Positions 38,180 through 64,000 of a stretch of DNA of 64,000 bases are shown one piece after another; position 1 is the first letter of the stretch, and each line of letters starts with the position of its first letter. The notes beneath the pieces were generated by a model that worked only from the letters and a program-made list of their open reading frames with translations, was not told the origin of the DNA and did no database searches. Source of the stretch: a virus; the IMG/VR virus record IMGVR_UViG_3300037485_001979, positions 62,001 through 126,000 of that record. One strand, given 5' to 3'. Both the position numbers and the translations under genes were made by a program.

Positions 38180-38262
38180 CTTGATTTTTCTTTATCTATG
38201 GGTCCTCGGGGGCCTTGTGTCCCCAGCCCTCGGTTTACGCTTGGTCGCCCTCAGGAGACCAC

Positions 38263-40581: not shown

Positions 40582-41187
40582 TTATGGGGCCGCTGTTGCC
40601 GCCGCCGCAGATGCCGCCCTTAGCTCGGCCTGGCTCCACATCACTGACTTGCTTTCGCCCTTGTAGGGCAAAGCAAGTTTTTTATCCAGCAAATAGGCAT
40701 TCAGGGATATTCCATCTTTATCATAGAACTCGACGATAGCTCTGCCGTATTTATCGAGTGACTTGGATTCACATGTCACGGCGCGCTTCATCCATTCCAC
40801 AACAATGGCTCGAACAGCGAGCCCAACTGGCTTCTGGGGGCCGGTGACTTCAGGGGTATCAAGCCCCTCGAGGCGGTAACACACCTTGCGCGAGATCTGG
40901 AATCCGAGGTCGAGGTTCACCCAACCCGAATCCCCGTCGTGGACATCGATGATGGACAGCACGGGATAAACGTAGGGTTTCATGCCTTTCAAGTATCGGG
41001 GTTTCTCGGCGGCGTCCACATACGCGGGACACTGGGGCAACACGGTTGTGGCCTCCACTGTAGTTACTGTCACCCTTGGCTTGTCACATGCAGCCGCGAT
41101 GTATATGAATATCATAGATAGCGAGAACACTACGAGGAGTAACCCAATAGCAGCTAGTATGGGCTTTACTAACTCAGAGTATTTCAT
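40582..41187 (-). CDS. Membrane-anchored staphylococcal-nuclease-like protein
   Basis: 201 residues. A transmembrane segment near the start (ILAAIGLLLVVFSLSMIFIY) precedes the SNase core: IDVHDGDSGWVNLDLG, CYRLEGLDTPEVTG with the Arg and Glu of the active site, and YGRAIVEFYDKDG with the second Arg. SNase cuts DNA and RNA with Ca2+. Anchoring on the outer face of the inner membrane would place it in the periplasm, where it could degrade incoming DNA of rival phages or recycle host DNA. SD AAAGGTGGGG; TAATG overlap upstream. Confidence 0.8.
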   Translation of the reverse strand: MKYSELVKPILAAIGLLLVVFSLSMIFIYIAAACDKPRVTVTTVEATTVLPQCPAYVDAAEKPRYLKGMKPYVYPVLSIIDVHDGDSGWVNLDLGFQISRKVCYRLEGLDTPEVTGPQKPVGLAVRAIVVEWMKRAVTCESKSLDKYGRAIVEFYDKDGISLNAYLLDKKLALPYKGESKSVMWSQAELRAASAAAATAAP

Positions 41188-41732
41188 TACCCCACCTTTC
41201 TGGCGACCTGGTATTGGTAGGTCTGCCTAATCAGGAGTGCGGAACCCGCCTTAATTGAGGCTGCAATGATTTCATCCTGGGTAGCCCGTGAGGACAACGT
41301 GAGATCACGGAATGCCATGAGATTGATACCACTGCGTGTCGCATCACCGAGCACGCTGACGTAATCACTGAAGACTGCGGATAACGAATTGATGACCCCC
41401 TGACGAGGTGCCGCCCACTCGAACGTGGGTAACGCCGCTGCAATGGGGCCATCCGAATCGAACCTGACATATGTGAACCCGTCATGCCACGCCTGACGGA
41501 GGATGTTGTCAAATGCCGGGCTGAACCCGAACATACTGGGCGTGTTTTCCTCGTCATAATCAGCGCAGTAGACCCAGTAGCCCCCATTGGTGTCATCCAG
41601 CATGAGTATCGGGTTGTCGGGCTCCCTGAGCCCGTCATGAATGGATTCTAGGATGTCGTGGTCAAGATGGGTGAGATGCGCTGTCGACAGCACGGCGACC
41701 TTCATGATCTCCTGAAATACGGACTTAGTCAT
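41187..41732 (-). CDS. DUF5983-like protein
   Basis: 181 residues; SD AGGAGGTAG. VAVLSTAHLTHLDHDILESI, then MLDDTNGGYWVYCADYDEEN and AFDNILRQAWHDGFTYVRFD. The STAHL start and the Trp-Val-Tyr segment are what I recall of DUF5983-type proteins found in phages and plasmids; function is unknown. ATGA-coupled upstream. Confidence 0.6.
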   Translation of the reverse strand: MTKSVFQEIMKVAVLSTAHLTHLDHDILESIHDGLREPDNPILMLDDTNGGYWVYCADYDEENTPSMFGFSPAFDNILRQAWHDGFTYVRFDSDGPIAAALPTFEWAAPRQGVINSLSAVFSDYVSVLGDATRSGINLMAFRDLTLSSRATQDEIIAASIKAGSALLIRQTYQYQVARKVG

Positions 41733-41962
41733 TCTACCTCCTGTGAGGCTTCATGGGGTTCAGCAACGGTATCGTGGCCCTCCAGGAACACGAGGCACTC
41801 GGCACGGGTGGGCTTCCGGCCAAGGAGTTTGATAAGTGCAGGCTCATCCTCGACGACAGCCCAGTCGTAGCCATCGTAGGGTGTGATGTCGATACCTGCG
41901 GCGAGGGCGTCGCGTGCTGACTTAGCACCGAGCTCGCGAATAGCAGCAAGGCTAATGCTCAT
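41729..41962 (-). CDS. Small hypothetical protein behind a possible RNA switch
   Basis: 77 residues: MSISLAAIRELGAKSARDAL, GYDWAVVEDEPALIKLLGRK and an acidic end. SD GGAGG. Its leader has a terminator hairpin that can refold into a 13-bp stem hiding the SD and start (41961-42014). No family. Confidence 0.65.
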   Translation of the reverse strand: MSISLAAIRELGAKSARDALAAGIDITPYDGYDWAVVEDEPALIKLLGRKPTRAECLVFLEGHDTVAEPHEASQEVE

Positions 41963-42014
41963 GTCGTGGCCTCCAAAAAAAAGAACGAGGCCACGACATC
42001 GCTGCCGTGGCCTC
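41961..42014 (-). terminator. Terminator with alternative SD-hiding hairpin
   Basis: Minus strand order: arm 1 GAGGCCACG (42006-42014), arm 2 ATGTCGTGGCCTC (41987-41999), T-rich loop GTTCTTTTTTTTG, arm 3 GAGGCCACGACAT (41961-41973). Arm 2 pairs with arm 1 over 9 bp as an intrinsic terminator, or with arm 3 over 13 bp, covering the SD and the AT of the start codon. The two folds exclude each other. Confidence 0.7.
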
Positions 42015-42036: not shown

Positions 42037-42864
42037 CTACTTGCGACCGTGCCCTTTGCCATGCTTGGGTGCTGGCTTCTCGACTTCGACAGCCTTGGGG
42101 GCCTCGACTTCGGGGGTGTCATCATGGACCACGATGACAGGGTCAACTTTGTCTCCAGTGTCGAGACTGGTCTCGGGCTCTGAATCCCCCACGTGGCACA
42201 GGGAAACGGGTTCACTGGGTTCGACTGGCGCCACAGGAGCCGCTGGGGTGACCACTGGGGCGACCACTGGGGCTGCCACTGGGGCGATGGCACCGGCTTG
42301 ATCCAGGATCGCACGTTCGGCGCTGAGATCGCGAGTAATCGCGGCTGCAGCGGTGAACACGGGCTTGGCGTTGAGCTTGGCGTAACGCCGAGCCAACTTG
42401 TCCCGGTTGCTCTGCCAACGCTTGACCTGGGTGCCCTCGATACGTGAATCCAGGAGAGCCTGGTACCAGTCGACATCACCGGATTCCTCGAGTAGGTTGG
42501 TGAGATCCAGTTGTTTCCCATCATACATCGCCTTGATCAAGGCCTGGACGAGTTCGCCGGCTTCAGTGGCGATACCAACAATGGCATGGAAAATCTGGGG
42601 ATCCACGGGGAACGGTTTCGGTGCGGGTAGGGCACCGGCAACCATGGGGGCTGGGAATGGCTTCCCGTAGACCGTTGTTTTCTTGACGTGGTCGAGGACC
42701 TGGGATGCCTGCAGGAAGTCTTCGAGAGACTTCTTGAGGACCCCTCGATGCAGGCGATCCTCGAGATCAATCGCGGAGTCCGGGCATGCCGTGGACAACG
42801 CGGCTTCAGAGTAGGCCTCGGGGGTCGAAATGACGACCTGGCCATCCAATGGGTGATTTATCAT
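42037..42864 (-). CDS. MazG-like nucleotide pyrophosphohydrolase with low-complexity tail
   Basis: 275 residues; SD AAGGAGTT. Residues 90-140 hold the MazG signature: HAIVGIATEAGELVQAL with E101 and E104, and LLEESGDVDWYQAL with E126, E127 and D130. MazG enzymes hydrolyse NTPs or ppGpp-type nucleotides and phage versions may keep host metabolism active. After residue 190 comes an Ala/Pro/Val tail (VAAPVVAPVVTPAAPVAP) and a Lys/His end, not part of the family. ATGA-coupled to the next gene. Confidence 0.8.
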   Translation of the reverse strand: MINHPLDGQVVISTPEAYSEAALSTACPDSAIDLEDRLHRGVLKKSLEDFLQASQVLDHVKKTTVYGKPFPAPMVAGALPAPKPFPVDPQIFHAIVGIATEAGELVQALIKAMYDGKQLDLTNLLEESGDVDWYQALLDSRIEGTQVKRWQSNRDKLARRYAKLNAKPVFTAAAAITRDLSAERAILDQAGAIAPVAAPVVAPVVTPAAPVAPVEPSEPVSLCHVGDSEPETSLDTGDKVDPVIVVHDDTPEVEAPKAVEVEKPAPKHGKGHGRK

Positions 42865-43950: not shown

Positions 43951-44388
43951 ATGGATACCCCGACGACGACAAGCACCAGACGACGGACAGTGCTGAGACT
44001 TGACTACGATATCAACGGAGTCAGCGCGATCAGTGGATCCACTCAGGCCTGGTGCTCGCGTACGGCGTCGGATCCATTCAGTCTCCTGGATCGTGTGAAA
44101 TCAGCGAAACCAGAAGAAGACATCGCATTGCATGTTCATGGGTTCACGAACTCGATAGCGGTTGCACACTTGATGACCCTGTGGCGTGAATGCTCGAATC
44201 GTGGCGCCCACTTACGAGTCATCCTGCTTAATCACCAATCACTTCAAATCCTCAAAGTTCTCGGTCTCGGTGAAATCCTGGATGCCAGACTGTGTCCATT
44301 TAATTCTCGCAATCATGTGACCTGGGAACCCCCTACGGAACGGAATTGCGAATCCTGCAACAAACTGGACTGTGCAGTAGGGAATTAA
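43951..44388 (+). CDS. STAS-like protein with C-terminal Cys cluster (plus strand)
   Basis: 145 residues; SD AAGGAAA. Residues 55-112 resemble a STAS / anti-sigma-antagonist domain: DIALHVHGFTNSIAVAHLM, then WRECSNRGAHLRVILLN and LQILKVLGLGEILD, matching the helix-strand-helix end of SpoIIAA-type proteins. The usual phosphorylated Ser or Thr region is not clear. Residues 130-145 carry NCESCNKLDC, a possible metal site. It is divergent from the membrane gene and its stop overlaps the stop of the gene on the other side. It may control transcription in the host or phage. Confidence 0.6.
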   Translation: MDTPTTTSTRRRTVLRLDYDINGVSAISGSTQAWCSRTASDPFSLLDRVKSAKPEEDIALHVHGFTNSIAVAHLMTLWRECSNRGAHLRVILLNHQSLQILKVLGLGEILDARLCPFNSRNHVTWEPPTERNCESCNKLDCAVGN

Positions 44389-44882
44389 GCCGGTGGGTTT
44401 AATTGTCGCCCGGCTTGCTCCCAGCCTCGATCCCAGCCTTCATGCAGCAGAGTACCCGTGGGATGCGGGTTCCCTGAGCGCGGTCTCCCGGCCTCGCGTG
44501 CCTTGGCACCCCTGACTCCTGAATCCCTGATGACCTCCCAGGATATCCTGGAAGGCTTGCCCACGTTGAGGTGGGGGTCCAAGGCCATCGCAATCGCGGC
44601 CTTGGCGTCGTCGACGAGATCCCCAGTGGCCCCATTGCGATCCATCCAGGCCACGAGAGCCTGGAGGGCGCGAAGCATGACTGCCTCGGAGCCATCACGG
44701 ATGCAGATGGCATCGGGCTCAAAGGTGTCCATCCAACTCTCGGGCGTCGTATAAGCGACGACGAGGTGGAGGGCGTGATCGAAGTCTTCCTGGGGATCCG
44801 TGACGACACCGGAGTATCGACCATCGAGTCCCCTGGCGACGATACGCCAAGCATTGGATACAGGGTACTTGGGGGTCTCCAT
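44385..44882 (-). CDS. Hypothetical protein
   Basis: 165 residues; TGAGG before the ATG. It has a mixed core (DHALHLVVAYTTPESWMDTF, AVMLRALQALVAWMDRNGAT) and a C-terminal part with REAGRPRSGNPHPTGTLLHE. No family. Its stop shares the TTAA with the convergent STAS-like gene. Confidence 0.65.
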   Translation of the reverse strand: METPKYPVSNAWRIVARGLDGRYSGVVTDPQEDFDHALHLVVAYTTPESWMDTFEPDAICIRDGSEAVMLRALQALVAWMDRNGATGDLVDDAKAAIAMALDPHLNVGKPSRISWEVIRDSGVRGAKAREAGRPRSGNPHPTGTLLHEGWDRGWEQAGRQLNPPA

Positions 44883-44886
44883 AACC

Positions 44887-46404
44887 TCAGGCCTGCGCCG
44901 GGGGTGTCACGTGGGCCTCAATAGTTGCAGGGATCTCCGTGTGGCCCTTGGTGTCACCACCAGGGACCTCGCCAGGGGTACCCTGGGGCTCCTCGGCATT
45001 CTTGGGTGAATGGGCGAGATACAGAGTGGTCAGCAGTGCCTTGGTCTTCTCCAGGGCCTCATCGATGAGGATATCCCCAATCAGGGGTTCCAGGAGCTCG
45101 CGGACTTGTGACAGCGAGTTCTGGGCCTGGCTGATCACGATGTTGCCCCAGTAGATGAGTTCGTGTTGCTCGTTGAGAGCGGCGACCCCACCTGCTGCCT
45201 TGATATCGGCGAGGACATCATCGATGACCGGGATGATCTCTCCTGCCATCTCGGATTCCGCGATGGGGATAGCCTCGGTCGTAATCGTGTGGACCACCTT
45301 CAGGGAGTTCACGGCACGACGTGCCTCGTCCTCATCGAGCTGCATGTGGATCCAGGCCACGGTCTCGGCGACCGCGTTCTGGATACTGCCTTTGCCTTCC
45401 AGCATGGCCCTGAACTCAGGGCTGGCTTCTGCGGATCTCTTGATCTTGGCGTCGAGCCGAGGCGACTTCATGCAGGCGAGCTGAAGCGTGTTGTGGAGCC
45501 GAGCATTGTACTCAGCAGATGCCTCGGCAGCGTAGACCTCCTCCTCGCTGGGCTCCACAACGGTGTCACGGAGCTCAATGGTCTTCGCACGGGAGACCCC
45601 ATAGGTGATGCCACTGACGACGCGATCGAGGAGCCAGTCATCGAACGATGGCTTGTCATCCCCGGCGTCTGCGGTCTCCAAGACGTAATCGGTCTGCTGC
45701 TTCGCCTTGTCCAGGCTAGCACACCTCGCCTTGGCTTCCTGCAGGATGACCTCGGTCTGCGTGGCCATGTGTTCATGCACCAGCTTACTAATCTCATCAG
45801 CGGTGTACTTCGGCACGGGCTTCATCGTGAACCCGGGGTCACGCCTCCAGTCCTTGCCTGGCTTCCACTGCAGGTCCTCAATCAAGGCCTCGCGGATCCC
45901 GGCGAGCATCCTGCGCTCCCTGTCAGTCAAGGAGACCTTGTCGCCCTCGGCAACGGTTTCCACAGAACTGTCCTGGACCTCGATCTTGAATGGGGAATCC
46001 ACGGGAATCGCACCACCCCCTGTTGAGGGTTGAACCGGTACGAACACGAAGGCGTGCTTCCAGATCAGCTTCGCTGTCGGCAGCATGTAGAACTCAGTCC
46101 CGGTATCCCAGCCAATGGGCTGGTAAGGGGAATCCCCGTACTTGACGAAGACCACCTTGTTGTCAATGAACACACCGGTCTGGCACCAGAAGGTGCCAGC
46201 GTAGAGGCGGGAGAGCAGGATACGACCTTGCATGCCGTGACGGATGACCTTGGTGAGGAACCGATAGAGATGCACACGATCCAGCTTGCCCTCAGCGATT
46301 TCCTCAGGGGTCTTGGTGTCAGGTTTCAAGGCTTCCATGACCTGCTTGCGCAGGGCTTCCTTGCGTGCCTGGGCCTCGTCTTGGGCTACTTCGATCTCCG
46401 CCAT
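44887..46404 (-). CDS. Large helical protein with N-terminal GQ(V/I)W-like segment
   Basis: 505 residues; SD GAGGAG. After a charged helix (AQDEAQARKEALRKQVMEAL), residues about 60-130 contain LYAGTFWCQTGVFID, VVFVKYGDS and KLIWKHAFVFVPV, a divergent relative of the recurring domain. The remainder is long and helical (TQTEVILQEAKARCASLDKA, AYIHMQLDEDEARRAV-type stretches). It may act as a structural or regulatory hub. First gene after palindrome copy 7. Confidence 0.65.
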   Translation of the reverse strand: MAEIEVAQDEAQARKEALRKQVMEALKPDTKTPEEIAEGKLDRVHLYRFLTKVIRHGMQGRILLSRLYAGTFWCQTGVFIDNKVVFVKYGDSPYQPIGWDTGTEFYMLPTAKLIWKHAFVFVPVQPSTGGGAIPVDSPFKIEVQDSSVETVAEGDKVSLTDRERRMLAGIREALIEDLQWKPGKDWRRDPGFTMKPVPKYTADEISKLVHEHMATQTEVILQEAKARCASLDKAKQQTDYVLETADAGDDKPSFDDWLLDRVVSGITYGVSRAKTIELRDTVVEPSEEEVYAAEASAEYNARLHNTLQLACMKSPRLDAKIKRSAEASPEFRAMLEGKGSIQNAVAETVAWIHMQLDEDEARRAVNSLKVVHTITTEAIPIAESEMAGEIIPVIDDVLADIKAAGGVAALNEQHELIYWGNIVISQAQNSLSQVRELLEPLIGDILIDEALEKTKALLTTLYLAHSPKNAEEPQGTPGEVPGGDTKGHTEIPATIEAHVTPPAQA

Positions 46405-46444
46405 GTCGTGCTCCTCTTGGTGTGAGCACGCAGTTTGATTCAGG

Positions 46445-62738: not shown

Positions 62739-62923
62739 GGGGTCCTCTTCTCCACGGTACCATCAAGGTAACCGTGGTGCCAAGTAATGAACTCAGACTC
62801 GAGGCCCTGACGCTCAATGAAGAGCGCCAGGGCCTCGATGAGCCCGGTTTTCGTGATGCCATCCACGGTGTCCTCAACCGCGGCGAGGTGGTCTAGGATT
62901 CCTGAGGTGGCGCCATCACTCAT
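62735..62923 (-). CDS. Small helical protein
   Basis: 62 residues from the ATG at 62923 (SD TGGAGGACC, ATGA overlap). MSDGATSGILDHLAAVEDTV, GLIEALALFIERQGLE and WHHGYLDGTVEKRTP. No family. Belongs to the four-gene string that ends with the GHKL ATPase. Confidence 0.6.
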   Translation of the reverse strand: MSDGATSGILDHLAAVEDTVDGITKTGLIEALALFIERQGLESEFITWHHGYLDGTVEKRTP

Positions 62924-64000
62924 TGGGTCCTCCAGGTCACCGCGGCGAACCGGAGGTCTTTGAGGTGGTGGATCTCGCATTTGCCATCATACGAGTTCAG
63001 TTGGCCGCCGGCGTCTTCACGGGCGACCTCATGACACCAGTCCAGCCAGTCCTGGTACTGCTTCGCATTGAGATCCTTCTGGGGATCCCATTGCTTGACA
63101 TGGATCTTGTCATCTTTACCGATAAACCCACGTGAACGCAGCCAGCACTGCTTGCCGTAGTCAGCGTAACCATTGTTGACCCCATGCGCAGCCAATGCGG
63201 CCACTGCGCCTTCAGGGGAGTATTCCTGGAGCGACGGCAACGCGATCATGACATATTTCTCGGGGCCATAACTGAAGGAGACCTCTGGCAACGGTTCGCC
63301 CTCGATGCCATCCGGGCTCAGGCAGCGGTGGAAGCTGTCGTTGTCGAGCTCGAAGCCATAACACTTCGTGATATCGAAGCGCATGGCGAGGGCGGGCTCA
63401 AAGGCTTCCTGGAAACCCTTGTGGCTCGCCTTGGGGAGTTCATTGGCGATGAACTCCTTGAGCTCAGTGGTGTCCCCAGAGAAATCATCGTACTCCTTGC
63501 GGAGTACCTCACATGCCTTGTCATATGGCAGGAAATTGCCGTCGTTATCACAGAGCAAGTGCATGTTCTCGGGGGGAATGACGAAATGGGCTTCCTTTAC
63601 AGTGTCGAGATCACGCACACTGAAACCGAGTTCACCAAAGGAACCAATGGTGATGTAAGGTTTCGCGCCCCTGTGGTTGTTGGTATCACTGAGGATGTGA
63701 GGCCAGCCTGCCTTGGCCATGCGCTGGTGTTCCATGCGCTGGGCTTCACCACCGGAGACCAGGATACCCGAGCTGCACCAGATCTGGAGCAGGGACTTCG
63801 CAAACCTCACCATCTTGGGGTCCGCATGCTTGGATTCCGTGACCAAGGCATACGCATTGTTCTCGATATAGGTCCGCAGTGCCGCGGGATCCGAGAGGGC
63901 TTCATCCAGGGTGCCCCAGGTGATGAGAACATCCACAATAGGTGAACACGTGAACTCATTGTGACCCCACCCCAGGAATGGTGGCATGTTGAACTTCCAC
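62920..64000 (-). CDS. Hypothetical protein, 5' end uncertain at the window edge
   Basis: At least 355 residues. The frame stays open past the ATG at 63987 to the edge (W-K-F-N before M), so the true start may be outside; GGAAG 6 nt before 63987 also allows a start there. Contains PFLGWGHNEFTCSPIVDVLI, YITIGSFGELGFSVRDL, VSFSYGPEKYVMIALP and a C-terminal EIHHLKDLRFAAVTW. No family recognised. It opens, or is in, the GHKL operon. Confidence 0.65.
   Translation of the reverse strand, partial: WKFNMPPFLGWGHNEFTCSPIVDVLITWGTLDEALSDPAALRTYIENNAYALVTESKHADPKMVRFAKSLLQIWCSSGILVSGGEAQRMEHQRMAKAGWPHILSDTNNHRGAKPYITIGSFGELGFSVRDLDTVKEAHFVIPPENMHLLCDNDGNFLPYDKACEVLRKEYDDFSGDTTELKEFIANELPKASHKGFQEAFEPALAMRFDITKCYGFELDNDSFHRCLSPDGIEGEPLPEVSFSYGPEKYVMIALPSLQEYSPEGAVAALAAHGVNNGYADYGKQCWLRSRGFIGKDDKIHVKQWDPQKDLNAKQYQDWLDWCHEVAREDAGGQLNSYDGKCEIHHLKDLRFAAVTWRTQ

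What the first reader, a model, noticed from the sequence alone, without database searches (positions are those of the whole stretch)
41961..42014. Mutually exclusive terminator and SD-hiding hairpin
The middle arm can pair with the upstream arm (9 bp, then a T8 tract, an intrinsic terminator) or with the downstream arm (13 bp, covering the SD and the AT of the start codon of the 77-residue gene). Exact 13-bp complementarity that includes the start region is unlikely by chance and resembles a two-state attenuator or translation switch.
Basis: partly seen in the sequence, partly recalled or inferred. Interest (0 to 1): 0.75.

Follow-up and report, generated by a model that had tools for sequence, protein, structure and literature searches.

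The report
Phage terminator arm hides next start
In an uncultivated bacterial virus, an ordinary stop signal for gene copying sits just before a small accessory gene whose start site happens to be an exact mirror copy of half of that stop signal, which probably dampens the small gene's translation; a related virus keeps the stop signal but has neither the gene nor the mirror copy, and nothing indicates a metabolite-sensing switch.

Summary
The sequence observation holds, on the minus strand. Arm B (41999-41987) can pair with A upstream or with C downstream, and C covers the SD and the AT of the 77-aa gene's ATG. The terminator is 12 bp with a GCGA tetraloop (not 9 bp), followed by GUUC-U8 (-24.3 kcal/mol). 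The B-C hairpin is exactly 13 bp (-25.3). An exact 13-nt match is not ordinary chance (about 3e-5 for one SD-bearing leader; no other strict terminator candidate in this phage or its relative exceeds 8 nt).

The switch reading is weak. C is made only after RNA polymerase has passed the U-tract, so B-C cannot be an antiterminator. Only 22 nt separate the MazG-like gene's stop codon from arm A, too little for an aptamer, and Rfam finds none. It lacks the 77-aa gene too, so it does not test the hairpin's function.

Best reading: a conserved intrinsic terminator, with an accessory gene present in one phage whose leader is an inverted copy of the terminator's 3' arm. In read-through RNA the two near-equal folds would dampen translation, as in T4-type SD-hiding hairpins.

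The parts
42037..42864 (-). MazG-like pyrophosphatase gene (275 aa) that the terminator follows; stop codon TAG at 42039-42037
   Evidence: PHROG 229 E 8.7e-22; 79% identical ortholog in the relative
42003..42014 (-). Arm A, 5' arm of the intrinsic terminator (GAGGCCACGGCA)
   Evidence: identical in the relative
41987..41999 (-). Arm B, 3' arm of the terminator (ATGTCGTGGCCTC); pairs with A (12 bp, from 41998) or with C (13 bp)
   Evidence: identical in the relative
41975..41982 (-). T8 tract of the terminator (T5 in the relative)
41961..41973 (-). Arm C, third arm (GAGGCCACGACAT), exact reverse complement of B; covers GAGG of the SD and AT of the start codon
   Evidence: absent in the relative
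41970..41974 (-). Shine-Dalgarno sequence GGAGG, 7 nt before ATG
   Evidence: sequence
41729..41962 (-). 77-aa accessory gene of unknown function; its stop codon overlaps the next start (ATGA)
   Evidence: codon score like other genes of the phage; no relative found in phages, IMG/VR, genome contigs or the relative phage
41187..41732 (-). DUF5983-domain gene, directly downstream and probably translationally coupled; in the relative it follows the terminator directly
   Evidence: PF19419 E 4.8e-15

Best explanation
This is an ordinary intrinsic terminator that ends the MazG-like gene's transcription unit, conserved in a related phage, immediately followed in this phage only by an accessory 77-aa gene. 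The gene's ribosome-binding leader is an exact inverted copy of the terminator's 3' arm, most likely made by a short template switch at the hairpin when the gene was gained (or kept from an ancestral leader that the relative lost). Steps: RNA polymerase makes A and B, the hairpin plus U8 stops many transcripts (inferred from anatomy); those that read through carry C. B then exchanges between A and C, which are within about 1 kcal/mol (computed), so in part of the molecules the SD and start codon are closed. The expected effect (inferred) is a passive dampening of translation of the 77-aa gene and, through the ATGA overlap, of the DUF5983 gene. No ligand or regulator is needed or indicated.
For: Terminator identical over 28 of 28 bases in the relative, with other terminators of the two phages conserved and carrying compensatory changes. 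In the relative the terminator is followed by TTTTTGGAGAATCACTATG of the DUF5983 gene, without the 77-aa gene. C matches the reverse complement of B over 13 of 13 but arm A only over 11 of 12, so C looks copied from B, not from A. Energies -24.3 and -25.3, and the favoured fold flips with transcript length. The 77-aa frame has a normal codon score, SD and ATGA coupling. Template switching is proposed to create RNA hairpins (title and abstract, PMC8794818).
Against: There is no second leader carrying this gene, so no covariation or selection on B-C can be shown, and gain versus loss of the gene cannot be polarised with one relative. A rare chance match (about 3e-5 per leader, times perhaps ten leaders, times many windows scanned) is not excluded. 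With A-B enforced the SD is still partly paired, so the gain from switching folds may be small. No expression data exist.
Confidence: 0.52

Rival explanations
1. Functional two-state translation switch: a factor, a ribosome or RNA processing chooses between A-B (SD open) and B-C (SD closed), for example by cutting or covering arm A.
For: The two folds are isoenergetic and mutually exclusive, with a modest computed barrier of about 10 kcal/mol. A second, imperfect three-arm terminator at another locus has an arm that tracks the change in its partner between the two phages.
Against: The third arm is absent in the one homologous leader. There is no aptamer space, no Rfam match and no known regulator. 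The A arm starts 22 nt after the MazG stop codon, probably beyond reach of a terminating ribosome (inference).
Confidence: 0.13
2. Neutral coincidence or mutational by-product: the inverted copy arose by chance or by template switching and has no noticeable effect on expression.
For: Unique among the terminators of both genomes and not conserved. Low computed SD accessibility is common in these phages: median unpaired probability about 0.3.
Against: A 13-bp GC-rich stem across SD and start codon would normally reduce initiation (established for T4 gene e, PMC3014915).
Confidence: 0.3
3. Classical transcription attenuator in which B-C acts as the antiterminator.
For: Arms overlap as in attenuators.
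Against: C lies downstream of the U-tract; folding of the growing chain shows only A-B until C is complete. Antiterminators are encoded upstream of the terminator so that they can form first (PMC9226507).
Confidence: 0.02
4. Assembly artefact at an inverted repeat in a metagenome contig.
For: The record is an uncultivated virus contig, and no second read set was available.
Against: Flanks are collinear with the relative on both sides, and the inserted frame is open, SD-bearing and ATGA-coupled.
Confidence: 0.03

Closest known systems
T4-type SD-sequestering hairpins (genes e, soc, 49, I-TevI; mobE of Aeh1)
   Same: Phage mRNA hairpin covers SD and/or start codon on long transcripts coming from upstream; several are accessory genes placed between conserved genes (PMC2988022, PMC3014915)
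   Different: There a late promoter inside the 5' arm frees the SD and the hairpin is conserved; here no promoter was found, the 5' arm is the 3' arm of a terminator, and conservation could not be shown
B. subtilis vmlR leader (terminator SL-3 followed by SD-sequestering SL-4)
   Same: Terminator followed by an SD-hiding hairpin that may damp read-through mRNA (PMC9226507)
   Different: vmlR has a uORF, an upstream antiterminator and an inducer; here none, and the two hairpins share an arm
Intrinsic terminators tightly packed against the next SD
   Same: Several other terminators of this phage end within about 20-25 nt of the next start
   Different: None of the others pairs exactly with the next leader over more than 8 nt

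Membership tests
Intrinsic (Rho-independent) terminator | GC-rich stem directly followed by a U-tract | tested here: met
   12-bp stem, GCGA loop, GUUC then U8; -24.3 kcal/mol
Intrinsic (Rho-independent) terminator | Conserved after a gene in relatives | tested here: met
   Identical 28/28 after the MazG-like gene in the relative
Intrinsic (Rho-independent) terminator | Releases RNA polymerase | not testable with these tools
   needs in vitro transcription or Term-seq
Transcription attenuator / riboswitch | Antiterminator arm synthesised before the terminator is complete | tested here: not met
   Arm C follows the U-tract
Transcription attenuator / riboswitch | Sensor (aptamer, leader peptide, T-box) upstream | tested here: not met
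   Only 22 nt between stop codon and arm A; no Rfam match; leader peptides not exhaustively tested
T4-type SD-sequestering hairpin | Helix covers SD and/or start codon | tested here: met
   13-bp B-C helix
T4-type SD-sequestering hairpin | Promoter in or after the 5' arm gives transcripts lacking the hairpin | tested here: inconclusive
   No sigma-70-like site there; phage promoters of this group are unknown
T4-type SD-sequestering hairpin | Hairpin conserved among related phages | tested here: inconclusive
   The relative lacks both gene and arm; no other leader with the gene found

The most novel reading that the evidence does not exclude
These phages use terminators whose 3' arm is shared with a downstream arm, so that termination and translation of the read-through mRNA are linked in one bistable element. 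The window locus would be a recent example, and a second locus (G000 about 170,350-170,215 minus, and its ortholog) an older imperfect one with a co-varying third arm.
Probability: 0.1. Interest if true: 0.55.

Novelty: new variant of a known kind. Interest (0 to 1): 0.3.

Why it matters
If the dampening is real, it shows how a phage can acquire an accessory gene behind a terminator and have its translation muted at once by a local inverted copy of the terminator arm: a simple route by which SD-hiding hairpins could arise. If it is neutral, it is a caution that terminator-plus-third-arm patterns can look like switches without being attenuators.

Tried and rejected
Rfam at gathering and permissive thresholds gave nothing credible. 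Searches for the 77-aa protein in phages (E up to 10), IMG/VR and genome contigs found no relative. Deeper searches with the MazG-like and DUF5983 pair alignments gave only the one relative. The terminator as an exact DNA pattern in IMG/VR hit only that relative. Antiterminator reading rejected on order of synthesis. C as a direct duplicate of arm A disfavoured because C follows B exactly.

Full report
Setting. The window is bases 62001-126000 of a 171,559-bp uncultivated virus record, with no end repeats. The genes in this part run on the minus strand: a MazG-like pyrophosphatase gene (42864-42037), the 77-aa gene (41962-41729), a DUF5983 gene (41732-41187) and a nuclease-like gene (SNase/endonuclease). 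The 77-aa stop and the DUF5983 start overlap as ATGA, with an AGGAGGT SD inside the 77-aa gene, so the two are probably translationally coupled.

Observation. Between the MazG-like stop codon and the 77-aa gene are 74 nt. On the minus strand they contain arm A GAGGCCACGGCA, loop GCGA, arm B (A)TGTCGTGGCCTC, GTTC, T8 and G, followed by arm C GAGGCCACGACAT. C includes GAGG of the SD and AT of the ATG. The terminator is better than described: 12 pairs with one G.U and a GNRA loop, -24.3 kcal/mol, against -17.6 for the 9-bp version. B-C is 13 Watson-Crick pairs with a 13-nt loop, -25.3 kcal/mol.

Chance. In 400,000 simulated leaders with GGAGG and ATG fixed, 11 gave at least 13 complementary bases, about 3e-5. 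Real SD leaders in this phage and its relative give at most 9. Of the strict terminator candidates in both genomes no other has an exact third arm over 8 nt, and in a looser scan of 365 T-tract hairpins this one ranks first. Multiplying by roughly ten terminator-gene junctions (my estimate) gives a few times 1e-4 per genome. That is notable, but not beyond a scan of many genomes.

Comparison. One relative was found, IMGVR_UViG_3300032236_001859 (216,043 bp), collinear with this phage at about 72-91% DNA identity in aligned blocks. After its MazG-like gene (79% identical protein) it has the same terminator letter for letter, then T5 and GGAGAATCACTATG, the start of its DUF5983 gene. The 77-aa gene and the third arm are both absent. 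It shows that the terminator does not depend on C; it does not test what C does here. Other shared terminators of the two phages carry compensatory changes, for example G000:111910 and 121646, so they are real structures. The one here is invariant, which over 28 bases is not surprising.

Mechanism. Folding the growing RNA gives only A-B until C is nearly complete; then B-C and A-B alternate as the favoured fold with length. C cannot influence the termination decision. In transcription attenuation the antiterminator is encoded upstream and can form first (PMC9226507). Any effect must be on read-through RNA, where B-C would close the SD and start codon. The computed path from A-B to B-C has a barrier of about 10 kcal/mol, so exchange is plausible on cellular time scales (an inference from a heuristic path). 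With A-B enforced the SD is still partly paired by other contacts, so the difference between states may be modest. There is no room for an aptamer (22 nt) and no Rfam family.

Origin. C equals the reverse complement of B over 13 of 13 but matches A over only 11 of 12: A carries G where C carries A, so the G.U of the terminator is a Watson-Crick pair in B-C. This favours C having been copied from B by an inverted, hairpin-mediated template switch, a process proposed to create RNA hairpins (title and abstract, PMC8794818). Whether the gene was gained here or lost in the relative cannot be decided with two genomes.

Comparison with the known. The nearest analogues are SD-sequestering hairpins of T4 genes e, soc, 49 and I-TevI, and of mobE in Aeh1, which silence translation from long upstream transcripts (PMC2988022, PMC3014915), and the vmlR leader of B. 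subtilis, where an SD hairpin follows a terminator. This case differs in that the terminator's own 3' arm is the anti-SD arm. It meets the structural feature of an SD-hiding hairpin. Conservation and an internal promoter, which support the function of the T4 cases, could not be shown.

Verdict. The anatomy is real and unusual, the switch interpretation only partly supported. The most likely role is passive dampening of an accessory gene, with a neutral by-product a serious rival.

Noticed in passing
L018 (G000 about 170,350-170,215, minus) and the orthologous place in L022 (G001 about 68,830-68,690, minus): A very long terminator hairpin (over 20 bp) is followed in both phages by the conserved block TTTTTTGCTATGACTCATTGTCTGGCAAA and then an imperfect repeat of its 5' arm just before the next SD. 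The repeat tracks a C-to-T change in the arm, and own-phage pairings fare better than swapped ones with the same third arm (C0 -28.5 own, -24.1 swapped; C1 -21.0 own, -17.6 swapped).
   Followed up: partly
46404-46435 (minus), leader of the 505-aa gene: SD-hiding hairpin CGTGCTC/GAGCACG; the relative has CGCTC/GAGCG with one U-A to C-G compensatory change, although two outer pairs are lost.
   Followed up: partly
62923-62960 (minus), start of a 62-aa gene: The SD is complementary to sequence shortly upstream inside the preceding gene; in the relative this is a perfect 12-bp hairpin; in the window the start overlaps the preceding stop codon, suggesting translational coupling.
   Followed up: no
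24704-24660 (minus), 38180-38200 (+), and G000:167753, 170287, 170707 (minus): Several terminators in both phages are followed by a shared motif like TTTAtCTATG(G/A)(G/C), possibly a phage promoter placed right after terminators.
   Followed up: no
44388-44882 (minus): The C-terminal part of a 165-aa protein resembles ribosome modulation factor (PF04957, E 3e-5, below the gathering score).
   Followed up: no
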